Shown here: one piece after another, positions 1 through 53,800 of the stretch
Numbering within the stretch: position 1 is the stretch's first letter
How the letters are laid out: each line of letters starts with the position of its first letter
Source: Porphyra umbilicalis
Lineage: Eukaryota > Rhodophyta > Bangiophyceae > Bangiales > Bangiaceae
Reading direction: 5' to 3'
NCBI GenBank assembly: GCA_002049455.2
Contig: KV918763.1
Coordinates: 558,001 to 622,000, forward strand
Length of the DNA stretch: 64,000 nucleotides
Notes under the pieces: generated by a model
Seen by the model: only the letters and a program-made list of their open reading frames with translations
Database searches by the model: none
Told to the model about the DNA's origin: nothing
Position numbers and translations under genes: made by a program

Positions 1-204
1 ACCCCGCTGCCATGGGCTCTACGCCACTTTTTCTTACCTCTTCTGATAGAGGACGTCAGTACGACCACGATCGGCGCGACACACGTGAACGCAACGCCCA
101 TGGCAGTGGGGTTGTCAAGCATTTTCTGTTTTTTGACAGACGACCCTCGTTTTTTACTCAGGGGGACGTGTCAAGCAGGCTACTGTGCGAGAATCCGGTG
201 GTGC

Positions 205-1817: not shown

Positions 1818-4503
1818 GTGTGCGACCACCCCGCCTTGAAAAACGAAGGGGCGGTGCCAGGCACGCGTGCTGCCGACCACGCCCCTGCAGGGGCTATCCA
1901 GCAGGACGCGTCTCCGTCGGCAGGGTCGACGGGTCGGACGGCACTGCCTGCACAGGGCGCACGCGACGGCCCAGCCGGCCCGCACGGCGGCGGCCTGTCA
2001 CCGCGCGAGGGGAGAGGACGCAGCCGTGGGCGGCGGGGCCGCCCCCGGCGGCAGCGACGGCCGCCCCGCGGCACGGCTGTGCGCCCGCCGCCGCTGCGAC
2101 GGCACGTCTGCCGCCCGCACCACGCCGCCACGATGCGTCCCGTGGTGCGGGCGGCGGCGGCGGCGGCCCCCACCGCCGCCACCGCCGCCGCCACCCCCGC
2201 GTCGGCCCGCCGTCCCGGCGGCGGCGCCCGCGACGCGCGGCGCCGAGGCGTCTGACCAACACGCCACCCGCGGGGCGCCGCACCCTCGCGGCGGCCGAGC
2301 CGCCGCACGGCCGCGGCGGCGGCGGCGGGGGCCCCCACGGGGGCCCCCCCCGCCCCCACCCCCGACGCGCACCGCCGGTCGGGGGCGGCAGCGGGCGCGG
2401 CGGGCGGCCCGCGGGGGGCTCCCCCGGATGCGGGCGGCACCCCGGGGGGCGGCGTGGCCCAACGCACCCGCCCAGCCGACGCGCGCGCGCGTGGCGGCGG
2501 CCAGCAGCAGGGGCGGGCGGGGTGCCCCCTGGTCGGGCTCCACCCGTAGCCGCCGGCGCCGCCCCCACGCGGGTGGCGGCGGCGTCGAGCCCCCCGCCCC
2601 CGCGGCGGGTCGTCCCCACCGACGCGCTGCGTCGCCACCGCGTCCCCGCCGCGCCGCCGCCGCGTCGCCGCCCCGACGCCGCCGGGGCACCGTCACGACG
2701 CCGCCGCGTCGCCGCCGCGTTGCGCCACCCACGCCGCGAGCGCGCCGCACCGCCCGCCGGCGGCGCGGCCACGGCGGCGCGCGTCGGCCGGCCGGCCGGC
2801 CGCACCCCCCCCACGCGCCCGCCCGCCCGCCGCGCAGCAGCAGCAGACTGCCGTCGTTGCTAGCGGCCGCGGGCGCGGCGCGCGCGCGCGCGCGAGGCCG
2901 GGCAGCCGCCCCCCCGTCGGCGGCGGCCCGCCGGCCAGACGCGGCGGCCGCCGTCGCCGCCACTCGCCGCCAACGGCACCGCCGGCGGCGGGGAGGGGCC
3001 GCGGACGACCCGCGGGCGCTCGCGGGCGCAGGCCCCCCCGCGCGGCGCGCCGGCACGACCTGCGCCCGTCGACAGAGGCGACGCGGGGGGGGTCGCCGCA
3101 CCGTCCCTCCCCCCAGACGCGTGAGCCCGCCGGCGGCGGACGCAGTGGGGCGTGGCGGGAGCCGCGGCGACCGCCCGCGGGGCGGGTGGTCGGGTCGGGC
3201 GTCCCGCCGGCCGCTGGGGGGGGGGGCGCCCCCGCCGCCTCATCACGCGCACGGCCACCGCGCGGCGCGGCGTCCATGGGGACGGGCCGCGGCGGCGGCG
3301 GCGGCGGTGCCGGCACGCGCTGGCGTGCCCGCCAACAAGAAAAGGACCGTCACGGGGCCGGGCGCCGTCGCGGCCACGTCACTCCCGCGGATCTGCGCGG
3401 CGTCCACGACAACGGTGTCTGGCCAAGTGCCGTGGGGCGGCGACCAAAAGCGCCACGGCCGTGCGGTGGTGGCGGCCGCCGCCGCAGCGCCCGGCCCCGC
3501 GCCGCGGCACGTGGGCGCTCCCCGCGCCGACGGTGGGCACAGCGGCCGCCACCACCCCCTGCACTGCGGCCGGCGGTCATCCGGCAGCGGCGCAGCGGGC
3601 GCGCTCGTCGGCAGCCACCCGCCCGGCCCAGGGTCGGTCGCCGACCGGCGGTGGCGTCGCCGGCAGGCGGCCGGACACGCGCGCGGCGGCCGCCGGTGTG
3701 TGCTGCCGCCGCCGTCGCAACGGCATGGGGCGGCACGCTACGTGGGGGCGCGGTCGTTCTCTGTGTGCCCGGGTGCGGGCACGGGTAGGGGGGGGGGTGG
3801 CGCCAGCGGCGGTGGCAGCCACCGCAGCGGCTGCGTTTTCTTTTTTTTCTTCCCTGCCGCCAGCAGACGGCGACCGCGCCGCCGCCGCCGCCGCCCCCCA
3901 GAGGGACGGTCGGCGGCGGCGGCGGTGGGGGCGCCGCTCCCGGGCCGCGTCGCCACCGCCGCTGCCGTGGCCGTGGCGGCCGTGGCGGCGCTTCCCGCGA
4001 CCGCGACGGGTGGTCCCCGCCCGGTCGCGCCAGCAGTCACCCTGCCAAAGCAGGCAGTGACGCCGCTGCCAGCACGCGCACGGGTGGCACGGCGCCCTCC
4101 CCCCCCCCCCGCCCTGCCCCCGCCTCCACCGCCCGCCGCGCGGCGCCACCCGCCCGCCCGTCCGCGGCACCCCCACCGGCGGGTACCGGCAGCGCAACCG
4201 CCCCCGCCGCCAGCCACGGCGCCGCACCGGCGGCGCCGCCGACGTGGCGCCGCTCGCCGGCGGCTGTGAGGAGAAGGGGGGGGGGGCGCCGCGGTCAGAC
4301 CCGGGTCGTCGGCCGGCGGCGACGGCGGCGGGGTGGGGGGGGGGCAGGCGCCCGTGGCGGTGAGGGATAGAGGGGGGGGGGGAGCCGCCGCCGCCGCCGC
4401 GGGGGGCGTGGCGGCCGACCCGTGTGCGACCGCGCCACCGGCGACCGCCGGCGGGACGTTGGGGTCGCCGCCTGCTGGGCCAGCGCCGCCCGCATCGTCT
4501 CCC

Positions 4504-9348: not shown

Positions 9349-10546
9349 TCAGCGGGGGCGGGGGCGCGTGGACCCCCCCCCCCCCCCCCACCCCGACCGC
9401 AGCGCCGTCCCGCCGCCGGCCGGCGAGCGCCCGGCCGCCGGAGAGGGCGGCGTCGCGCCCGGCCCGCCGTCGCGCCCGCCGCGGCGGTCGGCGGACCCGC
9501 CGGGCGACGCGTCGCCGCCGCCCAGTGAAGGCCGCGAGGAGGCGTACCCGCCGCCGCCGCCGCAGCGGGGGGGGCGGCCCCCGCGCCACCCGCCGCTGCT
9601 GGCAGGCGACGCGGGCGGCCACGGCCGCCCGTCGACGGCCGCTGCCGCCGCCGCCGCCGAGGCGGCCGCCGAGAGGTAGAGCGGCGCCGGGCCGCCACCG
9701 CCGCCGCTGTCGGTGGTGTAGCGCGGTGGGGGTCCCCCGCTGCGGCCCCCCCCGCCCCCGCCGGCGCCCCCACGGTCCCACCCCCGCTCCCCCCGCGGGG
9801 GGGAGTGGGGCGACGCAAAGCCGCCGCCACTGCCACAACTGCCGCCGCTGCGCGGCCGCCGGCCGACGGGGCTGATGCTCCGCCGCCGCCCGCCGCTGCG
9901 CGGAGAGAAGAGGGGCGGCCGCCCCGCGCTGCCGCTCGCCGATAGCGCAGGCGACGCGGGGGCGGGGGGCAAGGGTGGAACCGCACCCGAACACGCGCCG
10001 GGCGGCCCCCCCCCCCCCCCCCCCGGCGTCGACGGCCCGCCGCGGGCGACGGGGTAGTCGGCCCCGCTGCCGGCGGGGCGCCTGTCGGGCCACCCGCGAG
10101 CGCGGGCGAGCAGCGACGGCCCGCCGCCGCCGCCGCCACCCCCGCCGTCGCCATACTTGCCCGGGGTGGGGTAGGCGCGGCCGCGGGTCCCCGCCGGCGG
10201 CGGCGGCAGCGACAGCAGCGGGGGCGGTGACAGCGGGCGGCGCCCCCCGCCCCCCCCCCCAACGCGCCCCCCCCCCCCCACCGTCATACGATCGCGCGTG
10301 TCAGTACACGTCGCCCGGCGGCAGGGGCGGCGGTCCGCGCTCCCCCCCCCCTCACGACCGCGGTCGCCGCCGCCGCCGCCGCCGCCGTCCCCACACCGCC
10401 GCGGGGACGGCGGCGTCGGCCGCCGCGGCGCGCTTGGCCGCGGCGGCCGCACGGGCAGGCCAAAAGAGGCGGGGGGCACGGGCGGGCCGCCGCCGCTGGC
10501 AGACGCACCCCCCCCCCCTCCATCCCCCCCCCCGCCGCCCCCCCCC

Positions 10547-10578
<32 letters not shown>

Positions 10579-10646
10579 TGGGCGCCCCCCCTCAAACGCC
10601 CGCCGGTGCGGGTGCATCCATTCCACCGGGTGGGCCCCCGCCGGCA

Positions 10647-10678
<32 letters not shown>

Positions 10679-11209
10679 TGCGGCGCGAGCATTGGCGGCG
10701 GCGGCGGCAGCGGCAGCGCGTGGCCGCGCGGCGACGGGTGGGCGGCCGCCCGGCGGGGGCCGCCCCCCGCCGCGTGGGGCGGCGTACGCGGCCGCCGCAG
10801 CGGGCCACCGCCGCCGCCGCCGCCGCCGCCCGCCCCCGACGAGGCAGACGGGGGCGGCGGCGGGGGCGGCGGCGCCGACGGCAGCGGCGGGGAGCACGCC
10901 CGCGGATACCCCGCCGCGTTGGCGGTGCGGTGGGGGGGGCGGCCGGGTAGGCCGCCCCGCCGCCCCCGACCGCCGCGGCGGGCCGCCGTGGCGCCCGCCG
11001 TCGGCGCCGCCGCCGCGGATCCGTCGCTCCCCGGCGGGCGCGTCGGCGCCCCCCCCCCCCCCCCGCCCGGCCGCTCGGCGGGCGCGCCGCCGCCGCGGTC
11101 GGCGGCGCCCCCGCCCCCCACCGCCGGCGGGCGGCCGGGCAGCAGCGGCGGCGGGCGGCCGCCGCGGACGACGGGTGGCGACGGCAGCGGCGGGCCACCC
11201 CGTGGCGGT

Positions 11210-11240
<31 letters not shown>

Positions 11241-11510
11241 GCGGCGGCATGCCCCCACCCCCCGGCGTGCCGCCCGACGCGTGGCGGCAGGCGTCCCCAT
11301 ACGGGCCGTCCCCCCCACCCCCCCCGTCGGCGCCCCGGTGGTGCCGCCCCCGCCGAGGTCGCCCCCGCGGTCTGGGCCACGGGCGGGGCCGGGGCCGCCC
11401 CGCTCACGGCGGTCGTCCCCCCCCCCCCGAGGCCGCGGCGTGCGCCCCCCCCCCAAAGCGGTCGCCGCGCCCGCCGCGGTCGCGCTCGCGCTCGCGCTCG
11501 CGGGCGGGGT
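9349..11510 (-). CDS. Probable Arg/Glu/Asp/Gly-rich low-complexity protein
   Basis: On the minus strand one frame is open from an ATG at 11250 to a stop at 9349. It is rich in Gly, Pro and Ser but includes Tyr, Trp, Phe and Asp in patterns unlike a random GC-rich reading. Upstream, the same strand encodes an alternating Arg-Glu/Arg-Asp tract (near 11471-11510) followed by Gly-Arg-Gly-Asp-Arg-Phe, then Asp/Arg/Gly-rich blocks. Changes of frame are needed at poly-G runs to join these pieces. RE/RD plus RGG-like tracts are typical of RNA-binding or splicing-associated proteins, but no RRM or KH domain was found, so the function is unknown. The N-terminus is not located. The plus strand is also open here as a Pro/Gly mirror. 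Confidence 0.38.
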
Positions 11511-11514
11511 GGGG

Positions 11515-12540
11515 GTGGCCCCCCGCCCGTCCCGTCGTTGCCGGCGGCGGCGGCGGGGGGGCGGGGGGGGGGCGGCGGCCGGCGGCGGCGGCGGCGGCGG
11601 GGGGGGGGGGGGGGGGGCGGCGGCGGCGGTGCCATCAAGGCGGCACCAGCGGCGCGGCGGCGGTAGGCGGCCGACGCACCCGGCGCTCATGCGCCCCGCC
11701 CCGCGGTCAGCGGCGGCGGTGGGGTCGGCGGCGCGCCCCCCCCCCCCCGGCCACACGGCCGCGCGTGTCGGCCGCCGACGTGGCGGGTGCGCGCCCCACC
11801 AAAAAAAAAAACAAAGCAGTCGTGTGCGGTGCGTGCCGACCGTACCGTGGGGCGTGACACGCGGGTCACGCGGCGCGCGCGGCCGGCAGCACGGGCAAAG
11901 GGAACACCAAAAACAAAGGCACCGTCGCCGTCAGCGACGCGGTGCGCGGCGCGGCGAACAAGAAGCGCGCGAGGCGCCACCGTTTGCGTGCCACAAAGCG
12001 CCCCCCGTGGCGTGCGCCTGCCAGCCGCCGCGCCCACCCGCGGTGGACCGCCGGCTGCCGCGGGGGCGGCGGCAGCAGCGGCAGGCGGGGCGGGGGGGGG
12101 AGCGCCCCCGCCCTGCCGCCGCGTCTGCGGTGGTGATGGAGGGGACGGCGACGCCGCCGGCGACGGCCGGCGGCAACCCACGTCCGTGGCGCACCGGGTG
12201 GCGGCGGCGGGTGCGGCGGGCGCGGCGACCGTCGGTAGCGCCACACGGTGCCACGACGGCAAGAGCGAAGCTCTGGGGACTCGTGAGCGGGCGGCCTGTG
12301 CCGGTGGTGGGGGGGTGATGCGCCGAAGAGGGCAGCGGCACAGTGATGCAGCAGCGCGCCGAGCAGCCCATCATGACGTCATCCCGCATTTCAAACGGTG
12401 GTCCAGTTCAAACCGCTGAGCGTTCAAACTGAGGGGTGCTGCGAAACAGGAGGAGCACCCATATGGGAGGGCTACATTCTCGTCGGCGCTAATCGGAGGA
12501 GTCTTAAGGAGGCTCGGGGAGACACGGCAGATGATGATCT
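11515..12540. other. GC-rich flank, no recognised gene
   Basis: Upstream of the Arg/Glu-rich minus-strand reading. It includes long poly-G and poly-C runs (for example near 11540-11630 and 11739-11749) and an A11 tract near 11811. Possible N-terminal coding of the neighbouring gene cannot be excluded. Nothing is identifiable. Confidence 0.4.
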
Positions 12541-14229: not shown

Positions 14230-15710
14230 CCCCCAGCCCACCGGCCTCACACCCACGTCCGCCTCCGCCGCCGCTACCGCGCAGTCCACCCGCCCCCTGG
14301 GGCAAACGCCACGCCACTCCCGCCCCCTCTCCATGATGGCTAGGCTTGTTGCCAGTAGCAAGCCTATCGCAGCAGGGGGCGCGGGCGCAGGGTCCGCCGC
14401 CGCCGCCGTAGGGGCTGCCACCGGCTAGCCAGCGGCGTCTTCACCCCTCCCTCCCTCCAGCCCCACGGCCCCTCAACCCCTCCACAGCCCCCCGAACGTA
14501 CCCCCCTGTCCTTTCTCCTCCCCCCACGACGTACCGCGCGGTCAGTTGTGCGACATCCCGCACGGCCGGATCCGCCACCGCGACACCACCACCCCCTCGC
14601 ACGGGCCACACGCACGACGCCGCCCTCTCCTCGTCACAGGTCCGCGCACAGAAGCACGCGGGCAGCTGCGTCACGCCACTCGCGACTGCCCGCTTCAGTC
14701 ACTGCGCGCCACGGTCACACCACATTCCACGACTCTCGGCCGTCCCCGATCTTGGCCCTCTCCTGCGCGTTCAAAATTTTGAAGAACAAAAACACCGTCC
14801 AGAGCATCTCAGGGGCATGTTTCACCAATTACGTCTTCAATTCCTCACCCGACGCGGTCATATGCAGCACGCATCCTCGTTTCCAGCTCGTCTGAAGCAC
14901 AGACCCCCCGTTTCAAGCCATCTGAATGAGAAAAAAACCCTCTTTCTACATGGTTGGACCTCACAAACGCCCAACGTACGGCCATCGTGCAAAAATACAT
15001 GTACGGATAGTGTGCAAGTTGACGCTTCTAACCATGTCGGACTCAACGTACGGCGACGTCCGCCCGAGCCGTACCAGGTCTCTCCGCGTACACCCCGCTT
15101 TTTCGCAAGTACTCCCGCAACGTGCACTAGCTCGGAAAAAAATTAGAATGGGGGCCCCTATGCGCATGTTGGATAGTACCCTGTCCTAAAGGCCAGGGGA
15201 CTGGGGGATGCGTTTCTTTTTTTTGAACTGGGCGATGGGACTGCTTCTTGTTGGTGGGATCAAGTGTGGCGCACGGGGGTGGAATCCTGGGCCAACTATT
15301 TACTTGGACCGTGAGCCCCGGGTGGCAGCTCGTGTCTGCGCCGTCGAGGTGGGCCGACGCGAAACCGCTCTGCCTGCTGCGGGGATCACCGCGCGGTCAC
15401 ACGCGCTCCGCGTCGCGGCCGGTCGGCCGCCGCGCACCCACCCCGCGCCCCACGCCCCGCGCCCCACGCCCCGCGCCCCACACCCCGCTCGAGCGGTGCG
15501 GCACCCCCCCCGCCGACCGCTCCGCCCCGCTTTCCGCCCGCCTCCCCTCGGTGCGGTCGCTTCTTCTGCCCCCTTGCCGCATCTTGTCCCCGCCGCCGTC
15601 TGGCCGGCTCGGTGTGCCGCGCGTGTGCCAACGGCCGCCGCTCGCTGCCGCCTTGCCGCGCGACCCCGTTTCCCTGCCTCGCCCCTTCCCGCGTGCCCCC
15701 CCCCCCCCGC
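14230..15710. other. Intergenic stretch, nothing recognised
   Basis: GC content varies, with an AT-richer part at 14.75-15.25 kb. Short ORFs have no domain. The last few hundred bases (15.4-15.7 kb) are C-rich and probably contain the 5' leader of the KH-Smr gene. Confidence 0.4.
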
Positions 15711-15714
15711 CGCC

Positions 15715-16569
15715 ATGGGCCAAGCCCAATCCCATGCGCCCTCCCCCCCGGGGCCCCCCCCCACGCGGCTGGCGCCACGTCCGCCGCCCTCCCCGTCCCC
15801 AAGGCGCAACACGGGCGCGTCATTGGCCCCGGCGGGGCGACGATTGCGGCGCTCCGCCGCGAGACGGGCGCCGCCATTGAGGTGCCGCCCAAAGCGTCGG
15901 CCGCGTCGACCATCACGGTGCGCGGCAGCGCCGCCGCCGTTGCCGCCGCCGTCGACCGCATCACCGCCCTCGTCGCCCCCCCCGCCGCGTCGTCGGCGGG
16001 CGACCGCCTGCGCGACGAGGCGGGCGACGCGGGGGCGGAGCGCGGGCGCCTCGCCGCCGCCGCGTCGGCGGCGTATGCGCGGGGCGACAAGGCCGCCGCC
16101 CACACCCTCTCCGTCGCGTCCAAGGCGGCGGGCGCGCGCGCCGACGCGGCGCACGGGCGCGCCGCGTCGGCGATTTTTCAAGCCGCCAACGCGGGGATGG
16201 GGCGGGGGGAGGTTGACCTCCACGGCTTGACCGTGCGGGAGGCGCTCGGCGTCGCGTCTCGGCGCGTCGACGCGCTGCGGCCGGGGGAGCGCCTGCGGCT
16301 GATTACGGGGGCGGGGCGGCACAGCGGGCCGGGGGGGCCCAAAGTGAAGCCCGCCGTGGAGGAGCTCCTGCGCGCGCGCAGGGTGCGCTACGTGGCCGAC
16401 GGGCCGGGCGCGTTTGTGGTGAGGGGGGGGGGGGGGGGGGGGGGGTCGGCTCCTGGCTCGACGGCTTGCTGGGGCGGGGGGGGGGGGGGGGGACGCGCGG
16501 CGGGTGCGCGTCGGCCTCGGCCGCTCGTTTTGGCGGTGGGTCATGCGCCTGCTATCGGGGCTGTTTTGA
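15715..16569 (+). CDS. KH-DUF1771-Smr domain protein
   Basis: The start is the ATG in GCCGCCATGGG; the N-terminus (MGQAQSH) fits an N-myristoylation signal. Next comes a single KH domain with its GXXG loop (IGPGGATI) and an alternating beta/alpha pattern. DUF1771 follows (LRDEAG...AAAYARGD...AHTLS...IFQAAN), then a complete Smr domain with DLHGL and TGAGRHS followed by a basic/helical end. DUF1771-Smr proteins act in RNA or DNA cleavage and ribosome-linked mRNA surveillance; a KH domain would add RNA binding. The frame changes at a C run near 15745-15770 and at G runs near 16423-16443 and 16479-16492, yet motifs stay intact on both sides. The chosen end gives a plausible C-terminus (VRVGLGRSFWRWVMRLLSG). 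No intron is needed. The KH and Smr calls are firm; the exact start and end are inferred. Confidence 0.82.
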
Positions 16570-17970
16570 AGCGACGGCGTCGGAGGGTGGTGGGTGGGGC
16601 CGCGTGGCGCTGGCCAGCGCGCTGCTGTGTCTTGCGTTTTGGTGGTGGTCGTCTGGTTGCCACACGCTTCGTTCTTGCCCTCGCTGCCAGCTGCATTGGT
16701 GGTCCCAACTGGCCCGGTGGCGCCTGCGAGCCCTGCGACCCGGACCGCCGCTCGGCCGACCCGAATGGCGCTCTTGTCACCCGACGCGCGCGGCTCTCCA
16801 CCCCGCTGCTTGTGGCTCGCTTGATAGCCATCCCCCGCCAATGGCCCCGCCGCACCCCCGCGCCCGTGGCGCGTGACACGGGGGATGACAAGCGCACCAC
16901 ACGTACACGTCTCCCCACACGCCGCACACGGTTGCCAGGCACAACTCCCCGCGCAGCGGAAACGGAGCCAAGCGCGGGTCGTCGGCGCCATGCAGCCGCC
17001 GCGCGGGCCGGGCGTGTGGCATGCGGCGGTGCGCGCGGTGCCGGGCACGCGTGGCGCCCCGTGTGCAGACGGTCGCTCGGCGTGTGCGGCGGGCCTCCGT
17101 GCTGCGCGTTGTTCAAGGTGTGCCCGCCTCCATAGCAGTAGCCGTCAGCTGTCGGTGTCGGGCGTGGGGGAGGGGGCGGCGCGATGGCGGCTGATTCGGG
17201 AATGGTGTATAGCAAACGTGCGGACATCGAGGCCGTTCTTCTTTTGTATCGCGCGTCTCCTCACATGGAGGCTGCTTGTCATGGCACCAGACGCACGCAC
17301 CGGCATCGTGACCAAACATCGAGTGCATGGCCCACTTGGCCGCACAAGCGAGGCACGCACTCAACGGCCTGCGTCGTGGGGGTACTCGTTGGGCTGCCAG
17401 ACATGCAAACTCAAGCGGCTGCTGGTGCGCCCTCCCTTTGTCCGCCCCAAAAGTCGGTTTTCCGGCCTGTTCAACCCGGGACCGACGAGCCCGGTTCTGG
17501 TCCGCGGCGTCCCGCAATCTCCAACAATGCTGTCGCATCATGGCCGTGGCCGCCGTGCGGGTGTGCGGACCACTGAGAGCAAGATCCTCTACGCCGCGCG
17601 TCTGCGTGAGGGTATATACATGGATGTCAACTAGCTCTAGGGCAAAGAAAAAAAGAAGGCACACACTCAAGACACGAGACGTCGACGAGGAGGGGCTGAA
17701 AGCAAGGATACCGTCCAAACGGAAACAGATACAGGCCGTGGTGCGCCTCGCCACGCGCACGAGTGATGGGTCGAAACACGGTGACGGTCGGCGCGACCAC
17801 GCCGCGTTAGCGGCGCCGTCGGAGCGCCACAGCTTGCCAAAAACGGGACCAAACCAAGGACGTCGGTGGTTGGTACCAACGCACCCCTCCCCTCCCTCCC
17901 TTGGTTGTGTGACTCGTTGAGGAACACCTGTAGGCCAACGCCGGGGGAACGACACGGCCTCTGCGCTTTG
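16570..17970. other. Convergent intergenic region
   Basis: Lies between the 3' ends of the KH-Smr gene and the tyrosinase-like gene. ORFs on both strands (up to 280 codons) have mixed composition and no motif. It probably contains the two 3' untranslated regions. Confidence 0.4.
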
Positions 17971-17975
17971 ACCGC

Positions 17976-20342
17976 TTAAGTGCGGATCCCCCGGTCCCTG
18001 CCCCCCCTGCGTTCACCGCCACCGCGACCACCTCTGCGGCCGACCTTCTTGACGTTGTTGCCGTCGTTGCCGTCGTTGCCGTTGTTGCCGTTGTTGCTGT
18101 CGTCATTGTCGCCGTCGTCGTCACCGCCGGAGGCGCCGGCCTCCTTGTCGGCTGCCGTGACGGTGACAGCCACCGACATGCCCTCGACAACCGCCTCAAT
18201 GGCAGCTTTTTCTACCGCCTTGAGGCCCTTGTCTGCCGCCTGCTTCGACACGGGGGAGGCGGCAACCCACTTGGCCAGCCGTGCCGCCCTGTTAGCCCGC
18301 GCCCGCTTCACCGCCACCACCGCCGCGCCGCGGCTGATGCGGCCGCCGCGCACCGACCGCGACTCCCGTGTCGACCGCCCGGCGCTTGCACCTGCATAGG
18401 CGACGCACGGGAGGTTGAACGTTGCCGACACGGCTACGCCAAACGGCGCCAGGGTGTCAGACGCTGCTACCTTGCGCCCGTTTTGCTCCCCGCCATACCC
18501 CGTCGCGCCGTTTTTTCCCTGCCAGTCGGCCCAGATCTTGTCGACAAACGCTTGATGCACAAACGAGATTGGGTCGTTGGCTGACGTCCGCGCAACGCCC
18601 ATGTCGCCAATCGACGAGCCCAGGACCCCGCCGACGCCGAGGTTGACAAAAGCCGCTGACATTTCCAGCGCACCCTCGAAGTCGGCATACTCGAGGTCGA
18701 GGAACTGGGCGAGCACGCCCGCCTCATCAAAGATGATGTCGTCCATGCCCAACTGCTCGCGGGCGTTGAATTCGCGTCGAACACAGTGGTCATCGGGTAC
18801 GTTCGCGCGGAGGTCGGCAAAGGGGCCGTCGGGAATGCACTTGCCTACCGCAGCGCCGCCAAACAGGTCCTTGCCAAAGATGGGGTCCAACGCCGGGTCG
18901 TCGAAGTTTTCTGTCCACTGCCAGTAGGGCAACACGACCGACGGGTTGACCGATCGGAGGGCGTCCTCCAACTCCAACAGGAATAGCCGGTGCCACGGGA
19001 GGAACTGTGCGCCGCCAAAAGCCTGGTCGACGTTGTTAAACAGCCGTGACGAGATGTCCGCGTACACCCCGTTGGCGATAATCGCCTGCCACGCAGTCGT
19101 CAGGGCGGTCCGCTCTGCTGCCGAGAGCTGGGTGACCTCCTTCCGCGTCCGCCGGTTTGTGGCGTTGCAGTTGCGGAAGCCGTCGCCAAAGGTCCACGTG
19201 GCGGGGGGGGGGGACGGCGCCACTGTCGAGGGAACAGGCGTAGGAGCCCGAGTTGGTGCCGCCGACGGTGGCGCTGTTGACGGAACGGTCGTCGGCGCAC
19301 GAGTCGGAGCCACCGTGGGTGGCGCCGTCGATGGAATGGGCGTCGGCGCGCGAGTCGGAACTACCGTGGGTGGCGCCATCGACGGAACAGGCGTGGGGGC
19401 CTTGGTTGGCGCCCTGGTTGGCGCCTTGGTCGGCGCCTTGGTCGGCGCTTTGGTCGGAGCTATGGTTGGCACTTTCGTCGGAGCTTTGGTAGGAGCCTTG
19501 GTCGGAGCTTTGGTCGGAGCTTTGGTCGGAGCTTTCGTCGGAGCTTTCGTCGGAGCTTTGGTCGGAGCTTTGGTCGGAGCTTTGGTCGGAGCTTTGGTCG
19601 GAGCTTTGGTCGGCGCCTTGGTGGGAGCTTTGGTCGGAGCTTTAGTCGGCGCCTTGGTCGGAGCTTTGGTCGGAGCTTTGGTAGGCGCCTTGGTTGGTGC
19701 CTTGGTTGGTGCCTTGGTCGGTGCCTTGGTCGGCTCCTTGGTCGGCGCCTTGGTCGGCGCCTTGGTTGGCGCCTTGGTTGGTGCCTTGGTTGGTGCCTTG
19801 GTTGGTGCCTTGGTTGGTGCCTTGGTTGGTGCCTTGGTTGGTGCCTTGGTTGGTGCCTTGGTCGGCGCCTTGGTTGGTACGGGCGTCGGCGTCACTGTCG
19901 GCACGGGCGTGTACCCCCCCCCCCGAACCGGTGTTGGCTTGGGCGTGATCATGGCCACCCCCGTCGGCGTCGCCGACAGGCCACACAGCATCCGCCCGCA
20001 CCGCCGGGGCCGACACTCCTGCACGCGCTTCCACGTCGTCGCGCACGGGTTGTACGCGCCCCGCCGGCCGCGGGGCGCCACCCACGTGTTGGGCGGCGGC
20101 GACGGGCAGTAGCCGACGGTGACGCGGCGCCACGGGTTGTAACACCTTTCCCCACACTCGGTTTGGACCCAACAACAAAAATCGGTGCGGCCGGCGCCGC
20201 CGTAGGAGGTGCCGCCCCAGCAGGAGGGCACCAGCCGCTGCGCCGAGCCGATTGCCGCGACGGCGGCGAGCGACACGGCAGCGGCGGCGGCGGCGGCGGC
20301 GGCCGTCAGCCGCCGGCCACCAAAAGACACACAGGGCGCCAT
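17976..20342 (-). CDS. Secreted tyrosinase-like protein with APTK-repeat stalk; copper ligands mostly lost
   Basis: Predicted 788 aa, single exon. The ATG at 20342 gives a signal peptide (Arg-Arg, then an Ala/Val-rich core). Domains in order: a domain of about 85 residues with 10 Cys; a Thr/Pro/Lys stalk of about 40 tandem Ala-Pro-Thr-Lys units, then looser Ala-Pro-Thr repeats; a tyrosinase central domain; a basic segment; and an Asp/Gly/Asn-rich tail. The tyrosinase fold is clear (FLPWHRLFLLELEDALRSVN, VVLPYWQW, NDPISFVHQAFVDKIWADWQ). However, aligned to bacterial tyrosinase, five of six copper-binding His are replaced: two of three in CuA (only the WHR His remains) and all three in CuB (Ala, Asn and Gln, the last where LHH becomes VHQ). 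It is therefore probably not an oxidase. A structural wall or extracellular-matrix role is a guess. Confidence 0.85.
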   Translation of the reverse strand: MAPCVSFGGRRLTAAAAAAAAAVSLAAVAAIGSAQRLVPSCWGGTSYGGAGRTDFCCWVQTECGERCYNPWRRVTVGYCPSPPPNTWVAPRGRRGAYNPCATTWKRVQECRPRRCGRMLCGLSATPTGVAMITPKPTPVRGGGYTPVPTVTPTPVPTKAPTKAPTKAPTKAPTKAPTKAPTKAPTKAPTKAPTKAPTKAPTKEPTKAPTKAPTKAPTKAPTKAPTKAPTKAPTKAPTKAPTKAPTKAPTKAPTKAPTKAPTKAPTKAPTKAPTKAPTKAPTKAPTKAPTKVPTIAPTKAPTKAPTKAPTRAPTKAPTPVPSMAPPTVVPTRAPTPIPSTAPPTVAPTRAPTTVPSTAPPSAAPTRAPTPVPSTVAPSPPPATWTFGDGFRNCNATNRRTRKEVTQLSAAERTALTTAWQAIIANGVYADISSRLFNNVDQAFGGAQFLPWHRLFLLELEDALRSVNPSVVLPYWQWTENFDDPALDPIFGKDLFGGAAVGKCIPDGPFADLRANVPDDHCVRREFNAREQLGMDDIIFDEAGVLAQFLDLEYADFEGALEMSAAFVNLGVGGVLGSSIGDMGVARTSANDPISFVHQAFVDKIWADWQGKNGATGYGGEQNGRKVAASDTLAPFGVAVSATFNLPCVAYAGASAGRSTRESRSVRGGRISRGAAVVAVKRARANRAARLAKWVAASPVSKQAADKGLKAVEKAAIEAVVEGMSVAVTVTAADKEAGASGGDDDGDNDDSNNGNNGNDGNDGNNVKKVGRRGGRGGGERRGGRDRGIRT
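19385..19885 (-). repeat. 12-bp tandem repeat encoding Ala-Pro-Thr-Lys
   Basis: About 40 units of 12 bp, in frame within the tyrosinase-like gene. Synonymous differences (GCC/GCT/GCA for Ala, ACC/ACG/ACA for Thr) and rare substitutions (Glu for Lys, Val or Ile for Ala) group into sub-blocks, which suggests expansion of multi-unit segments. The plus-strand reading (Gly-Ala-Leu-Val)n is a shadow. Confidence 0.9.
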
Positions 20343-30046: not shown

Positions 30047-32922
30047 CTACAGGTCCTCAGAAAACGGCTCCCTATTAAACAACACAAAATGGAGGCCCTC
30101 TCTCTCAATTGTGGCGACCACTTCGGCCACGGCGCCGACTGGTACGTATTCGCACGACCCGCCTAGCCCGAGGATACACTCAGTTCCATACTTGGTCGCC
30201 GTGTAACCATACCTGCCGAAGCGGTCCTTAGCCGACTTAACGCGCTCTACGTAGGCGAAGGCCATTACTTGGCCATCAATGAACACGGTCGCGTAGTGTA
30301 AGATGGCCCCAAACGTTGAGACTGAGCGCTCCCCCACGGAGCTGTCAGGGAGGAAGAAATCTTCTCGGGAGTTGATCCGTGCCAAGTAGTTACGGCGCCG
30401 GCGCTTGTCGCAGTCCGACCCGACAGGCCAAGATCCGGCAGTTTTTCCGGACGTCAGATTAGCTCGGCAGTACTTCTGAGCCAGATCATGAAGAGGCACT
30501 TCGTCGGCGTCCTCTTGGATCAGCACTGCCCGCATCCTAGCAAGCTCCGCCCCTCCAAGGCCCACAGGCTCGCTCCTAGGTGGTAGCAGCGCGCAGTCAG
30601 GGCCGACATCCTGAGGTACCTTCAGGCTGCCGCGAGGAAGACCGAGTGCCGTCCAACGTTTCTTAGTTGTTTCTGCCCATTCAGTGGGTACGTATTGCTG
30701 GCCAAAGGAAGTTATGAGGTCGGCCTTGCATTTGCGCGTGACATTCTTGACGAGGGTGGCGTGCGGGCTTGAACTGGAGCGGATCAGCTTTCCCAGCGTC
30801 CCAAATTTCCGTTCCATCGGAAACTGCCAGACGACCCAGGCTGGGCCGCACGCGCCGAGCAGCGGAACAATGTCCAGAAGAGAAGAATTTGTAGACAGGC
30901 AGAGCGGTAACAGCTCGGCCGATCCGCGGTACATCATCGTAGTAGTTTGTCACAAAATACTTGAGGACGTTGTCAATCGACTGGATATCCGCCTCAGATA
31001 CGCCCCAAGGTCGGAATAGCAGACGGCAGGCGCGGCTTAGTGCCATGAAGATCTTGTAGAAGGCTCTTGGAATCCGACTCGCCAGCAGTACTTCTCCGCT
31101 GCACAGGATAAAGTGCATCCAGTCGACCGCCTTGAAGGAATTTTCATGCATGTCGATATTTCTCAGAGATCTGGCCTGGGCCAGGGGCACCGTCTGGCGC
31201 GCCTCCCGCAGCTCCCGGCCGATGAGGGACACCTTCGCCTTCGGTAAGAAGTAGTCTTCGTCCTTCTTGTTGTTTACCAGCTTAAGCCCAGCGAAGAGCT
31301 TCCACAGGTGCGACACAACGTTAAGGAGCACCAAGTGCATGGTATCGTAGGGGGTGGCGGTAGGACCGATTGTCCATAAGTGTTGTAGGTGCGGGTAGGC
31401 GGTGCGCATTGCTGGGCTGGGCGCGAAGAACAGGGAGTAGCCCTTGACGCCACTCTTCTGCTGCAGCCTTGTCTGGTACGCGACCGATCTGCCTTCTGCA
31501 CGCGCGTCCTCCACTTCAGCCCCACTTACGGCGATACTTGCGGCCGTGCGTCGCGGTGCGATGCAGTCATGTACTTTTAAGAGGGACTTGCCGCTTTGAT
31601 CCTTAGGTGGGAAGTAGACATGGCTACTTGCAGGAGCGTGGATTCCCTGGAAGAGAAGAAAGCGGTTGTAAATGTAGCTGCTGACGCCAGTTAGCTGACA
31701 GAGCTTGTCGCCGCCCGGCTGATTCGTCGTTAAGTTGAGCACTCCGGCTCTTAACACGACTGGGGTTCGCGAGTTGGCTACTTTTAGACCGGGAACACCC
31801 TTGGCCAGCTCGTTTAACTCCGCCGCAATGGGGTGTAGAAGCGATTCGAGGTCGGCAGGTTGTCTTGGCCCAGGCGTTACGACCAGCAGTAGATGATACT
31901 TAGTGCGCGTCCGTTGGTTAGGGCTCAGAGTCAGGGGTGTGGCCGTTACCGGCCAGCCTTCGAACCCGTCCTGCCGAAAGAACTGAAAGCCGTCGGTTCC
32001 ACAGTTAACTGGTACGAAAGGGCCGTGATCGAGTAGTACTGCATCGCGGTAGTGACGAAAGTTCGAGCTGTGGGGGTAGTCATGGACCCCGTCGGCCACT
32101 TCATCCACAGCCTTGCGCACCGCAGCCATGTTCTCCATCATTGACTTCCCAATTATGGGGTCGCTGAGAAGGTGAGCCAACCAGGATGTCAAGGACCAGT
32201 ACGTGACCTGTTTGGCCGGCTTGCCGTTGGCTTTGAAGCGCGGTGCTCCGCAAGCGTCGCACGTGGTCTGTTGCGCGCGCGTGTGGGTGAAGGCCACGCA
32301 CCCGTGGACGCAACAGTCGACTAAGCTTGTCTCCAAGTTGACGCTTGCAGCGACGAAACGCTTCGTATGGTGGGGTGTGCAGTACGTGGCCGCGAAGGAG
32401 CTTCATTGAAGGAGAACCGCAATCGACGCTTGCGTCAAATCTTGTTGAACTGTGAAGGTGCAGCGCAAGGTCTGCTCTGCAATCCTTAAACTGGCCCACC
32501 GTCAGACGCACTTCGTTCGTTCTGACGATTGGTTGGTAAATCGGGATTGGAGGAGCCCCAATCTGATCTTATGGCTGGGGATCAGCGATGAAATCCGGTG
32601 GTGGTACGTCGTTTGACCCGTCTGATCCGTCTGATCCGTCGTTTGACGTGGAATCGCTCGATGCCACACTTGCGTCCGGCGTTTCGTCCGCATCGCATCG
32701 GCGCCGGTCCGCCTCGACGGCCGCCTGTGCGCTGGCGCCATCATCCCCTGGCGGTTGTGCTCCCTGGCCGCCCGACGGCACCGAAAGCCCGTCGCCCGCT
32801 GATGGTCCCCCCCCCCCACCATTGGGGAGTAGGGCATTTGCTGGACCGCCACCGTGGCCACCATGCTCCAAACGACGGCGCTTTTCACGCTGTCGGTGGT
32901 TAAAAGAAGTTGACCGACACAC
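30047..32922 (-). mobile_element. CACTA (En/Spm) transposon, tnp2-type transposase, decayed
   Basis: The minus strand encodes a tnp2-like transposase in pieces. The first has a basic/Asp-Ser N-terminus and a helical segment (VGQFKDCRADLALHLHSS). The large central ORF (32336-30681) has CVHGC and CDACGAPRFK zinc-binding pairs, TDGFQFF, the WPVTATPL block and YNRFLLFQGIH. The C-terminal ORF (30937-30047) has WQFPMERKFGTLGKLIRS. A stop at 32569-32571 and frame changes near 32370 and 30900 separate them, so it is probably inactive unless some of these are introns. tnp2 transposases cut and paste CACTA elements. Terminal inverted repeats were not found by eye, so the element limits are unknown. Confidence 0.82.
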
Positions 32923-48666: not shown

Positions 48667-50156
48667 TTACGGGCCGCCGCCCGCCGCCGGCGCATCGGCG
48701 CCTTGCCCACCCCCCCCCACCTCCACCCATGACCGCGGCCGCAGCAGGACGTCGAGCAGCGCCGCCGCGCGCGCGTCGGGCGCCCCCTCCCCCTCCCCAT
48801 CCCACCGCACCGCCGGCGGCGCGGACACCATCAGCCGGCGGGTCGCCCCCCCCCGTCCGCCCCCGGCGCGGCGAGGCCGACCGCCACCCCGCGGTCGGCG
48901 AGGAGGTTAAACTCGACGTAGCGCCCGCGGCGGCGGAGCTGCCACCGCCGCGCCGCCGGCCCGTAGGGCGTCGCGCAGCGGGCAGCGACAATCGCCGCGT
49001 AGCGGCGGAGCGCCGACGCGAGGAGCTCGCCGAGGTAGGCCACGACCGGGTCGCCAGTGACGGCGGCGGCGTCGTCGGCGTCGTCGGCCGCCCCCCCCCC
49101 GCCCCGGGACAGGGACGCCACGACCGGCGGGGAGAGGGGTAGCCCCTCAAAAAAGAGGCCGCCGACCCCCCGGTGTTCCCGCCGCCACGGCAGGTAAAAG
49201 TAGGCGTCGGTCGCCGCCTTGGCGGCCGCGTAATCGACGACGCCCCCCGCGGCGGCGCCCGCCGCCAGCTCCGCGTGCCACCCGCCCACGTCCGCGTCGT
49301 AGAGGTAGGCGGGCGTCAAGTCGGCGCCGCCGCCGCCAATGCCAGCGGTGCCGACGCAAAAGACGCGCACGTCGGCGCGCAGCGTCGGCACGTGGGGGTG
49401 CGCGGGGTGCACGACGAGCGACAGGGCGGCGGCGGTGTAGGGGGTGGGCGCGGCGGCGGGGCCCGCCGCCGCCGCCGCCGCCGCCGCCGTCGCCGCCGTC
49501 GCCGCCGCGGCGCCGCCGTCGCCGGCGGCGGCGGCGGCCGCCCCCAGGTGCGCCGCGAGGGAGGGGTGGCGGGCGGCGAGCGCCGCGGCACGGGCGGGCG
49601 GCAACGCCGCGCCCGTCGTGACCGTCACGTTGACGGCCGCCTTTTCAAACACCCCCCGACTCGGGGGGGATTCGAGGACGCACGACACGCCGCTCGCCCA
49701 CACGTCGCGGACAAAGGTGGGGGCGGCGGCGGTGGCGGCGGCGGTCGCGCCCGTCGCGTCGTCGTCGGCGCCATCGTCGGCGGTGGGGGGGGGGAGGAAG
49801 GCGGATGGGAGGGTGTGGAGGGTGCCAAACGCGGCGACCAGCCGCGCCTGGGCGGTGAGGAGGGCGGCCGCAAAGGGGCCCCCGCCAAACGCGTCGGCGA
49901 CATCGGGTGGGAGTGGGGGGGGGTCTGCAAAGAGACTGGGACGGCCAGAGGGGGTGGGAGTGGGGGGGGGGGGGGGCGGGGCGGGCGGAGGGAGCGCGCC
50001 GTCGCCCGTGGCGGCGGCCGCCGAGACGGTGAGCCGCCGCCGGGCGTGGCCGCTGCGCTGGCGCCTCGTGCAGTACAAGGGGCAGCAGGGACAAGGGGAA
50101 ACAAAGGAGCGAGGTGTGGGGGTGAGCGTTGGGGTGTAGGCTAGCGGTGGCGCCAT
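48667..50156 (-). CDS. CPOX: Coproporphyrinogen III oxidase, plastid-type
   Basis: Oxygen-dependent coproporphyrinogen III oxidase (HemF family), which converts coproporphyrinogen III to protoporphyrinogen IX in haem and chlorophyll synthesis. Family motifs seen in order: RDVWASGVSCVLESP, FEKAAVNVTVT, LVVHPAHPHVPTLRADVRVF, GGGADLTPAYLYD, DAYFYLPWRREHRGVGGLFFEGLPL, the C-terminal RRRGRYVEFNLLADRG and, in another frame, RRLMVSAPPAVRW followed by LLDVLLRPRSWV. The last frame change is at a C9 run near 48846-48854; a stop at 48667-48669 then closes the gene. An Ala/Gly-rich insert separates the early motifs. The ATG at 50156 (MAPPLAYTPT) gives a Ser/Thr/Pro/Arg leader ending near VSAAAA, fitting a plastid transit peptide; in-frame ATGs further upstream are possible starts. 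Divergent from RPN11. Confidence 0.92.
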
Positions 50157-50600
50157 CGTCCGCATCATGGCAGTGCACGAGGGGAAGGTGCCGTCGGAGT
50201 CGATCATCGATGGCGACAAAGCCGCAAAGCTCGAGGAGCTCGCACAGTCAGTCAAGATCTGGATCCAGGGACACGTGGCGGGTTGGTGACAAACTCACAT
50301 AAATCCAGGTCTTGGTTGGGCTTGGGATTGTCACTTCCGAAGCGGTGACAGCACTCTCGCTGCCACTCCAGCTGCAGCGTGGTCTCTGTCGAGCACAGCC
50401 CTTTGCCTTGGTGACGCCGCCGATCCAGGAGCGCCCTTCTCCGTGACAGAGCTTCGATCTCTCCCCGCCTTCCACATCATCCCCGCTCTCTGAACCCGTG
50501 CTCATCCATTTTCTTCCGGCGGCACTCCTTCGTTCCCGTTTGGTAGTGGACATTCCGCGTCACCGACACCCCCGCCGCCGGAGCCCGTCAAACACCCGCG
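50157..50600. promoter_or_regulatory. Bidirectional promoter region, CPOX/RPN11
   Basis: About 440 bases separate the divergent start codons of CPOX and RPN11. No TATA-like element at an obvious distance was found. The sequence contains CACGTGG (a G-box core) near 50272-50278 and is C-rich just upstream of RPN11. Shared promoter use is inferred from spacing only. Confidence 0.5.
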
Positions 50601-51834
50601 ATGGAGCAGCTGCAGCACCTGCTCCATGGCCAGGGCGGCCCGCCCCCGGATACGACGGTGATGGACACTGCAGAGACCGTGTACATTTCTTCTCTGGCGC
50701 TGCTCAAGATGCTCAAGCACGGTACGTTTTTCGAGACGACTGGTGCATTCCCGTGCGGCCGCATCTGGCAATGGGGGTGGCGGCGCCATGCTGCCCCCTT
50801 CTTCTACGGTTTTTGTATCGATTACTCCCCTCGCTGGCATGGCACGCCGGTGGGCTCCGCTGGTGCTGTGCTTTCTTTGCGATGCTGACGTTTTCCGTTT
50901 CTATACATGCTCTTGTGTGCATTGTCGTCCCGTCGCATTTTCGGCTCACTGTCGTTGTCCATCATGTTTTTCCATTGACCTCACTGCCTCGACTGGCTTC
51001 TTCTAACTTCCGTGGCGCTCCTGTGCAGGCCGTGCCGGTGTGCCCATGGAGGTGATGGGCCTCATGCTCGGCGAGTTTGTGGACGACTACACCGTCAAGG
51101 TTGTTGACGTCTTCGCCATGCCCCAGAGCGGCACGGGCGTGTCGGTCGAGGCGGTGGACCCGGTCTTTCAGACCAAGATGCTCGACATGCTGCGGCAGAC
51201 GGGCCGCCCCGAGATGGTTGTCGGCTGGTACCACTCCCACCCCGGTTTTGGGTGCTGGCTGTCGGGCGTCGACGTCAACACGCAGCAGTCGTTTGAGGCG
51301 CTGAACAAGCGCGCCGTCTCCATCGTCGTCGACCCGATCCAGTCGGTCAAGGGCAAGGTCGTCATTGACGCCTTCCGCACCATTGACCCGCAGGCAATGG
51401 TGCTCGCGCAGGAGCCGCGGCAGACAACGTCCAACGTCGGCCACCTGCACAAGCCGTCCATCCAGGCGCTGATCCACGGTCTCAACCGCCACTACTACTC
51501 GATTGCGATTGCGTACCGCAAGAACGAGTTGGAGGAGCACATGCTGCTCAACTTGCACAAGAAGCGGTGGACCGACTCGCTCGGCGTGGACGACTATGTG
51601 GAGCACTCGGAGGCCAATGCCAAGACCGTCGCGTCGATGCTGCACCTCGCCAAGTCGTACCAAGCAGCGGTTGTGGAGGAGCAAAAGTTGTCACCAGAGG
51701 AGCTGGCCGTTGCGCGCGTCGGCAAGCTGGACGCAAAGAAGCATCTTGAGGCGGACGTGGCGGCGCTCATGGCGACCAACATCAACCAGTGCCTCGGCAC
51801 GATGCTGGACACTGTCGTGTTCCGGGCAGAATAA
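50601..51834 (+). CDS. RPN11: 26S proteasome lid deubiquitinase RPN11 (PSMD14)
   Basis: Two exons: 50601-50721 and 51029-51834; the splice joins LKHG to [10 protein letters not shown] as in other eukaryotes. The product is about 308 aa, the usual length. It is a JAMM/MPN+ metalloprotease that removes ubiquitin chains from substrates as they enter the 26S proteasome. The zinc site is complete: the Glu of MEVMG, then HSHP, and the later Ser and Asp ([16 protein letters not shown]). Conserved blocks include [72 protein letters not shown] and the C-terminal LDTVVF. Unlike its neighbours it has no homopolymer frame breaks and moderate GC. AATAAA overlaps the stop codon (GAATAAACC), a possible polyadenylation signal. 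Confidence 0.98.
50722..51028 (+). other. Intron of RPN11
   Basis: Begins GTACGT after CACG and ends TCCTGTGCAG, with pyrimidine-rich sequence upstream. Length 307 bases. It is the only intron in the window supported by both canonical splice sites and protein continuity, so splicing is used here although most genes appear intronless. Confidence 0.95.
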
Positions 51835-52372
51835 ACCTGTACATGTGCGTGGCGTGCGCTGACAAGCGCCTCACCTTCTGTCCCTTGTTTTTCTTCCCGT
51901 TATTGCGCGCCAACTCGCCAGCGCATGGTCGAGCGCACGATGCAAGCACTCCGCGCCCCTTCTGCACTCTCCGTATTCCCCTCGTGTCCACCCTGCCCCC
52001 ATTCCCTTCCTTCTCCAGCTCCACCAGCACCATCCATCCTCCCGCCCCGTCCCACGTGTGACATGAGACGGACGCGGTCACACCGCAGCGAGTCCACGCG
52101 CAGTCCCCGCCGCGCAGTGTCTGCCCCGCGCGTGACGGCGATACCAGTGACGCCACCGCGGCGACGAGGCGGCCGAGACAGCGGCCACAGAGATTCCCTG
52201 CCACTGACCAAGCCTGGTTGCACGGCCGCTGTGGTCCCCACAACCGCTGCTCGGCCCCCGCTCCTCCTCTTCCCCCACCCATGTATGTCCGCTCACGCCG
52301 CCAAGGGCCCAGCACCGCCCGCGGTGGACCCCCCTCGCAGCACGACCGTCCGCCGCCACCCCCCCTTCCCCG
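51835..52372. other. Convergent spacer RPN11/MOG1
   Basis: Pyrimidine-rich 3' flank of RPN11 running into the 3' flank of MOG1. No gene or repeat recognised. Confidence 0.5.
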
Positions 52373-53070
52373 TCAGTCGTCGCAGAACAGGGACCAGTCG
52401 TCCACCCGCAAGGTGCGGAGGGCAAGAGCAAACGCCCCGCCTGCCCCCCCCCCCACCCCCCCCGCGCGCCTGCCGCCGCTGACGACGAGCCCGGCGCAAT
52501 GACCAGCGGGTCATTGACAATGACCAGCAAGTCGGTCGTCACGTGCGGGAGGCGGAAGCACCCGACGCTCACTTCAACGAGGTTGGCATCCGACGCCGCC
52601 TCCCGAAACTTGGCCACGGTGTGGTGGCCAGTCGCCACGGACGCGTCGACGGCGGGCGGGACGCCGCCAAAGGGGCGGGCCCCGCCGCCGCCGCCGCCGC
52701 CGCCGCCGGCTGCTTGCGCGGCGGCCTTGGCCGCCGCCACAGACGCTAGCATGGCCGGCATGTCGCCTGGCGGTAGGGGCGCTTCCCGGCGCAGCGCCAC
52801 CGCGACTGCGTCCGCGTCCGCCGCCAGCTGCCGCCAGTGGAAGGCCGCCGGCGCGGCGGCGGCTGGGATAAGCGACGGGCTGTCGCTGTCGGCCGGCGTC
52901 GATAGGAGCTCGACAATGACGCACGCGTCGGTGGCCGCCGCGTCGGCGTACACCTCCTGGTGGTCGGGTACCTCCCGCAGCGCGCTAACGTCCACGTACG
53001 AGGCGGGCACGTCGACGTGGAGGGCGCCGCCGTAGAGGGCCACCGTCTGGGTGGCGGGGGGGGATGGCAT
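52373..53070 (-). CDS. MOG1: Ran-binding nuclear import factor MOG1/RANGRF
   Basis: A MOG1-fold protein of about 230 aa. MOG1 binds Ran, promotes nucleotide release and supports nuclear protein import. The ATG at 53070 (MPSPPATQTVALYGGAL) is followed by the family core: LYGGALHVDVPASYVDVSAL, REVPDHQEVYAD, CVIVELL, then FHWRQLAADADAV. After an Ala/Gly-rich insert come FREAASDANLVEVSVGCFRL and TDLLVIVNDPLVI. The expected C-terminal strand, ALRTLRVDDWSLFCDD and a stop, lies in another frame, reached across the C-run pair at 52444-52463. Motifs on both sides are intact, so the gene is likely functional with a homopolymer length error. No intron. Divergent from the UBZ4-like gene and convergent with RPN11. 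Confidence 0.87.
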
Positions 53071-53800
53071 TACGACGGGTTTTCGAGGGGGGGGGGGACA
53101 CCCCCACTCGGCTGCCAGCGCCGTCAACCACGGCGGCGGGGAAGAGCGCCGAGCGAGACAAGCGCCGAGCGAGACGAGCGCCAAGCGAGACGATTGCCGG
53201 ACGAGATGATTGCCGAGCGAGACGACGGCTGCTTGGCCTGCCCGTGACCGCTGGCCGCCAACACGGTGTGTATGCACCGGTGTAGTAGTGCTTGTCGTGG
53301 ACGCCACGACAACCAGTATTCAAATACACCTAATTGAATGCTGAACGGAACCCAGTTAACAAGGGGGGATCATCGCATCCCGACTTCTGGCGGGAGCCTG
53401 GCCGTTTCCACGCACGCCCTCGGTGCGTCGCTACGTGGAGGACCACGGAAGCGCCGCGCGGCCCGCGCACGGGCCCCCGCTCCGCCCGCCCAGCCGCCCA
53501 CACCCCCCCCGCCCGGTCGCCGCGTCGACGCCAGCCGGTCGCCGCGTCGGCGCCCGGCGGCCACGCGGCGGCCGACGCGGCGGCGCCCCTTGCCCCGTGC
53601 CACCCATCCCCGTCGCTGCGGGCCGGCCGCCCCGTCGCCACGCGCCGCCCCGTCCGCCCCGGCCCCCGCGGCGGCATGGCGCCCGGCGGCGCCGCGCGAC
53701 CACCCCCGCCCGCGGCAGCAGCGGCGGCGGCCGCCGCCGCCGCTCCCGCCCCCACCTCCACCCCCCCCGCCACCGCCGCCGCTCCATCACCGACGCGCTC
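53071..53800. other. Divergent spacer MOG1/UBZ4-like gene
   Basis: Holds the 16-bp tandem repeat at 53148-53228. Beyond about 53.39 kb it becomes GC-rich and open in several frames. It probably contains the promoters of both genes. Confidence 0.5.
53148..53228 (+). repeat. 16-bp tandem repeat
   Basis: Five consecutive units based on GCCGAGCGAGACRAGC, with variants GCCAAGCGAGACGATT and GCCGGACGAGATGATT. It sits between the divergent start codons of MOG1 and the UBZ4-like gene, about 80 bases upstream of MOG1, so it could carry regulatory sites. Confidence 0.85.

What the first reader, a model, noticed from the sequence alone, without database searches (positions are those of the whole stretch)
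17976..20342. Tyrosinase-fold protein that has lost five of six copper-binding histidines
The central domain keeps the fold-defining blocks (FLPWHRLFLLELE, LPYWQW, NDPISFVHQAFVDKIWADWQ). Aligned by eye to Streptomyces-type tyrosinase, only the WHR histidine of CuA remains. The other two CuA His are Phe. The CuB His are Ala, Asn and Gln, the last because LHHAYVD has become VHQAFVD. The frame is intact over 788 codons and the fold is well kept, so this looks like a selected pseudoenzyme rather than a decaying gene. With its signal peptide, 10-Cys domain and long repeat stalk it resembles a matrix or wall protein.
Basis: partly seen in the sequence, partly recalled or inferred. Interest (0 to 1): 0.75.

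Follow-up and report, generated by a model that had tools for sequence, protein, structure and literature searches.

The report
Tyrosinase-fold protein without its copper site
A probable red-alga gene encodes a probably secreted protein that still looks like the pigment enzyme tyrosinase but has lost nearly all the residues that hold its two copper ions, so it is probably no longer an oxidase and may serve as a binding or structural protein outside the cell.

Summary
The 788-codon minus-strand ORF has a Pfam tyrosinase domain (E 2.1e-22); its predicted model matches bacterial tyrosinases (Foldseek E 1.2e-11, TM 0.75). Five of six copper-ligand positions are not histidine: CuA Leu434 (not Phe, as first read), Phe442, His451 kept; CuB Ala563, Asn567, Gln597. 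The protein has three histidines in all. Of 139 distinct relatives aligned, 134 keep all six ligands; five deviate, none as far as this one.

A type-3 copper site is effectively excluded. Selection rather than decay is supported only indirectly, and the long branch fits either. No algal orthologue could be reached, so dN/dS was not run. A wall or matrix role is inferred from anatomy.

Precedents exist: a millipede hemocyanin relative lost three ligands (PMC6034248), and three bacterial tyrosinase-like proteins found here lost two to four. This is a new, more extreme variant of a known kind, in a lineage (Bangiales, inferred) whose tyrosinase family is reported expanded (PMC7423979).

The parts
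17976..20342 (-). whole ORF, 788 aa plus stop
20241..20342 (-). putative signal peptide, residues 1-34 (arginines, then Ala-rich hydrophobic stretch)
   Evidence: most hydrophobic 15-residue window is residues 17-31; no signal-peptide program was run
19983..20222 (-). ten-cysteine region, residues 41-120; no Pfam or NCBIfam match
19200..19967 (-). Pro/Thr/Lys-rich stalk, residues 126-381; regular PTxx run at residues 148-319 (43 units, mostly PTKA)
   Evidence: PF04886 E 7.4e-26 for the whole protein, no single stretch passing on its own; unit analysis; net charge +43
18378..19190 (-). tyrosinase-fold domain, residues 385-655
   Evidence: the C-terminal limit is judged from alignment to L098
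19041..19043 (-). CuA ligand 1 position: Leu434 (CTG)
   Evidence: gapped
19017..19019 (-). CuA ligand 2 position: Phe442 (TTT)
18990..18992 (-). CuA ligand 3 position: His451 (CAC), the only ligand kept
18654..18656 (-). CuB ligand 1 position: Ala563 (GCG)
   Evidence: gapped
18642..18644 (-). CuB ligand 2 position: Asn567 (AAC)
18552..18554 (-). CuB ligand 3 position: Gln597 (CAA)
17979..18377 (-). C-terminal tail, residues 656-788, with Asp/Asn/Gly-rich and Arg/Gly-rich end; no family match at cut-off

Best explanation
A gene of a high-GC eukaryote, most likely a Bangiales red alga, encodes a probably secreted, modular, copper-free tyrosinase-fold protein. Shown here: the fold family, the ligand substitutions and the module order. 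Inferred: without five of six ligands the domain cannot hold the two-copper, oxygen-binding site, so it is not a phenol oxidase. Inferred, most likely role: the domain acts as a stable non-catalytic module (binding a phenolic or protein partner, or purely structural), held in the wall or cuticle by the strongly positive Pro/Thr/Lys stalk and Arg/Gly tail, which could bind sulphated galactans. It probably arose by duplication of a copper-binding tyrosinase followed by ligand loss.
For: PF00264 E 2.1e-22; model pLDDT 79.0, pTM 0.82; Foldseek best 5z0f E 1.2e-11, TM 0.75. Five of six ligand columns not His and only three His in the protein; 134 of 139 relatives keep all six. Nearest relative found, L098, has all six ligands, is the only one of 139 relatives with Cys at both the Cys502 and Cys520 columns, and groups with the query (98/90 in a clade with L008 and L099; 81/94 as a pair), which favours a copper-binding ancestor. 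Stalk net charge +43, tail +10. In 43 of 43 stalk units the first two positions of the Pro and Thr codons are invariant while third positions vary, pi 0.565 and 0.291. Tyrosinase genes reported expanded in Pyropia (PMC7423979 section 7, read). In cgAUS1, exchange of CuA His gave proteins with one Cu, and the mutations tested abolished diphenolase activity (PMC4364613, abstract in a search listing).
Against: No orthologue, transcript or protein evidence. Selection on the tyrosinase domain itself is not shown. The organism is inferred. Signal peptide and wall location are unproven; the stalk GC3 (0.63) is lower than its GC2 (0.77), and its Lys and Ala positions do change (38 of 43 each kept). 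A second, weaker hydrophobic stretch near residue 717 is unexplained. Query and L099 are long branches, so the grouping with L098 may be partly artefact.
Confidence: 0.5

Rival explanations
1. A released paralogue of an expanded tyrosinase family that is decaying under relaxed constraint; the frame stays open because stop codons are rare in GC-rich DNA.
For: Tyrosinase family reported expanded in Pyropia; the query has the second-longest end branch in the first tree (2.46) and the longest in the second (2.98); long frames that I take for chance are open in this window; 20 of 57 non-ligand conserved columns are also lost.
Against: No stop in 788 codons; GC3 of 0.79-0.87 in three of four modules (stalk 0.63); core motifs kept; losses concentrated at ligands (p 0.03); synonymous-only variation of stalk Pro and Thr codons, although that concerns the stalk.
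Confidence: 0.25
2. A non-catalytic partner or decoy that pairs with active tyrosinase paralogues and regulates or anchors them.
For: Family expansion reported in Pyropia; fold kept.
Against: No second tyrosinase domain in the window and no genome held, so nothing could be tested.
Confidence: 0.15
3. A site rebuilt for another metal or a single metal around His451.
For: His451 and Glu560, invariant in the 29-row alignment, are kept.
Against: The other five ligand positions are Leu, Phe, Ala, Asn and Gln; the two further His lie outside ligand columns. Known zinc binders of the family use the site's own ligands: TYRP1 has two zincs in its active site (PMC7036772, abstract in listing), and for TYRP2 a review passage says that binding is by three conserved His (PMC3658974).
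Confidence: 0.05

Closest known systems
Bacterial MelC2-type tyrosinase (PF00264; 1wx2, 5z0f, 3nm8)
   Same: Fold, WHR and PYW-W blocks, DP...VDxxWAxWQ block
   Different: Lacks five of six copper ligands; NCBIfam MelC2 score 92.4 against a cut-off of 450; adds Cys-rich module, PT stalk and charged tail
Non-respiratory hemocyanin relatives: millipede CleHcBI2 (PMC6034248, section 21 read), hexamerins and cryptocyanins
   Same: Loss of type-3 copper ligands with descent from a copper protein; CleHcBI2 has three of six His replaced (that hexamerins and cryptocyanins lack copper ligands is my recall)
   Different: Arthropod hemocyanin superfamily, not PF00264 tyrosinases (recalled); proposed storage proteins; no Cys-rich module or PT stalk known to me
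Bacterial tyrosinase-like proteins L008, L099, L134
   Same: Tyrosinase-type domains with two (L008) or four (L099, L134) ligands lost; L008 and L099 group with the query, L134 does not
   Different: Different ligands lost; bacterial; no PT stalk in the frames read for L008 and L099
Vertebrate TYRP1 and TYRP2 (PMC7036772 abstract in listing; PMC3658974 passage)
   Same: Tyrosinase relatives with altered metal chemistry
   Different: They bind zinc at the active site; for TYRP2 the source says by three conserved His

Membership tests
PF00264 tyrosinase domain | profile score above gathering cut-off | tested here: met
   81 bits against 22.6
PF00264 tyrosinase domain | tyrosinase core fold | tested here: met
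   model pTM 0.82; Foldseek query TM 0.69-0.79 over the top 41 rows; the input alignment held copper tyrosinases, which helps the model
Type-3 copper protein | three His at CuA and three at CuB | tested here: not met
   one of six; three His in all
Tyrosinase or catechol oxidase enzyme | phenol oxidation | not testable with these tools
   needs assay
Tyrosinase MelC2 (NF047834) | equivalog cut-off 450 bits | tested here: not met
   92.4 bits
Arthropod hexamerin/cryptocyanin family | sequence relation to arthropod hemocyanins | tested here: inconclusive
   the 52 PDB sequences matched are named tyrosinase, polyphenol or catechol oxidase, aurone synthase, aminophenol oxidase, oxidoreductase, DHICA oxidase or hemocyanin; organisms are not listed, and I recall those hemocyanins as molluscan
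Secreted cell-wall protein | cleaved signal peptide and wall location | tested here: inconclusive
   hydrophobic N-terminus only; location not testable

The most novel reading that the evidence does not exclude
Bangiales red algae have recruited a copper-free tyrosinase fold as a non-enzymatic building or binding module of their extracellular coat: a conserved algal counterpart of the hexamerins, evolved independently in the true tyrosinase branch.
Probability: 0.35. Interest if true: 0.6.

Novelty: new variant of a known kind. Interest (0 to 1): 0.45.

Why it matters
Copper loss in the type-3 copper fold is documented in arthropod hemocyanin relatives. A case in the tyrosinase branch of an alga would show that the fold is reused without metal more widely, and would warn that tyrosinase copy counts in red-algal genomes, used to argue for antioxidant functions, may include non-enzymes.

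Tried and rejected
Algal orthologues: no genome is held for the window; viral-contig scans gave no match (domain alone; Cys-rich module) or seven distant loci at 22-27% identity; phages none. Hence no dN/dS and no test for shared substitutions.

Secondary structure is only consistent: L434, H451, A563/N567 and Q597 lie in helices.

The Cys-rich module has no convincing match: a Kelch-design chain at 1.4e-7, with no stretch passing by itself, was set aside.

Literature: the listings showed no report of a copper-less red-algal tyrosinase; one search listed 20 of 121 papers, and the library lacks most subscription journals.

Rows dropped: 10 duplicates before the 139 count. For one search, 28 of 87 relatives were used (three truncated matches left out, then an identity filter). 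The 25 leave out three viral-contig rows. The first tree used 39 of 140 rows (identity and length filter), the second 29 chosen by hand from those 39.

Full report
What is there. The minus-strand ORF at 17976-20342 translates to 788 residues with no internal stop. Its modules are a hydrophobic N-terminus (best 15-residue window 17-31), ten cysteines at 41-120, a Pro/Thr/Lys stalk (PF04886), a tyrosinase domain (PF00264, E 2.1e-22; E 4.1e-24 for the domain alone) and a charged tail. The domain runs to about residue 655: its end (APFGVAVSATFN...VAYA) aligns with the end of relative L098 (PFGVTVASTLD...LGYTY). No second tyrosinase domain was found in the window.

Copper ligands. In the first relatives (80 from genome contigs, and 7 from viral contigs), 84 of 87 had His at all six ligand columns and the other three were matches cut short before CuB. 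In the wider set (149 loci, 10 duplicates dropped, 139 relatives) 134 had all six. That set is not a random sample: 30 loci came from a search seeded with L008, itself degenerate, and 22 from searches with the four-row alignment A3. The five deviants are L008 (four of six kept), L099 and L134 (two of six each), and L145 and L149 (five of six, both differing only at CuA1, where the alignment was not checked further). The query keeps one: Leu434, Phe442 and His451 at CuA; Ala563, Asn567 and Gln597 at CuB. Aligners put a query gap at CuA1 and at CuB1; the placement of Leu434 and Ala563 comes. Since His occurs only at 451, 519 and 596, no alternative alignment can restore the site.

Fold. AlphaFold2 on a 29-row alignment gave pLDDT 79.0 and pTM 0.82. 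Foldseek found 72 PDB chains at E 0.001 or better and listed 50; the top 41 are tyrosinases of Streptomyces or Bacillus/Priestia, one tyrosinase fusion (9pgz, so named) and two chains of an o-aminophenol oxidase, best E 1.2e-11, query TM 0.69-0.79. The alignment contained copper tyrosinases, so this shows compatibility with the fold rather than an independent proof. The low-confidence stretches are domain residues 189-195 and 200-202, between CuB2 and CuB3, and the end of the modelled piece, 270-276.

Selected or decaying? For a functional protein: of columns at least 90% identical in 25 prokaryotic relatives, the query keeps 37 of 57 non-ligand columns but 1 of 6 ligands (p 0.03, relatedness ignored). 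GC at codon positions 1/2/3 in the domain is 0.64/0.46/0.79, not far from RPN11 in the same window (0.64/0.37/0.87); GC3 is 0.87 in the N-terminal and 0.84 in the tail module, but 0.63 in the stalk. In the stalk, 43 of 43 PTxx units have invariant first and second positions of the Pro and Thr codons while third positions vary; the third and fourth residues are Lys and Ala in 38 of 43 each. Against: long branches, 20 of 57 conserved non-ligand columns lost, and GC-rich DNA in which long frames stay open. The question stays open without orthologues.

Relatives and origin. It keeps all six ligands and is the only one of 139 relatives with Cys at both the Cys502 and Cys520 columns. The query groups with L098, L008 and L099 at 98/90, and with L098 at 81/94 in a smaller tree without L008, L099 and eight other rows; both trees warn about the query's long branch. 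Within that clade L008 lost two and L099 four ligands, partly at different positions, while L098 kept all, so separate losses are the simplest reading (inference; the first tree needs three changes for the four rows marked as lost). L098 found no other match at 1e-45 in 35 genomes of its genus; its best plasmid match is the L008 record at 46.5% identity. Searches with A3 at strict cut-offs matched 11 of 346, 4 of 349, 1 of 201, 1 of 199 and 1 of 194 genomes in five phyla (the cut-off was 1e-35 in the first and 1e-30 in the others).

Host. The window holds eukaryotic-type genes: RPN11 (51007-51831 +), Mog1 (52081-53319 -), coproporphyrinogen oxidase (48834-50294 -) and a KH-DUF1771-Smr protein (15315-17132 +), from 10 frames scanned. 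GC in 2-kb steps is 0.51-0.86, which fits Bangiales, whose genomes are reported at 64-68% GC (PMC7423979 section 10, read); [quoted passage not shown] The assignment to Bangiales is inference.

Mechanism and comparison. Without the two-copper site the domain should not bind O2 or oxidise phenols (inference from type-3 copper chemistry; in cgAUS1, CuA-His exchange left one copper and the mutations tested abolished diphenolase activity, PMC4364613, abstract in listing). The positive stalk (+43) and tail (+10) could tie the protein to anionic wall galactans (inference); red-algal protein cuticles are known to me from recall only. The nearest documented parallel is copper loss in a hemocyanin relative: the millipede protein CleHcBI2 has three of six His replaced and evolves about 4.5 times faster than its duplicate (PMC6034248 section 21, read). 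The present case is in the PF00264 tyrosinase branch, loses five ligands, and sits in a modular, probably secreted protein. I rate it a new variant of a known kind.

Noticed in passing
L008:460-1260 (Streptomyces sp. NBC_01006 plasmid, WP_331740866.1): Annotated tyrosinase family protein with CuA intact but CuB ligands 1 and 3 replaced by Phe and Ala.
   Followed up: partly
   Followed up: partly
   Followed up: no
window 15315-17132 (+): One open frame holds KH, DUF1771 and a sub-threshold Smr match.
   Followed up: no
window 30684-32402 (-): Sub-threshold match to Transposase_21 (27.5 bits against 28.6), possibly a remnant of a tnp2-type transposon.
   Followed up: no
window 2001-4000 and 10001-12000: Very GC-rich blocks (0.85 and 0.86) with long overlapping open frames on both strands.
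   Followed up: no
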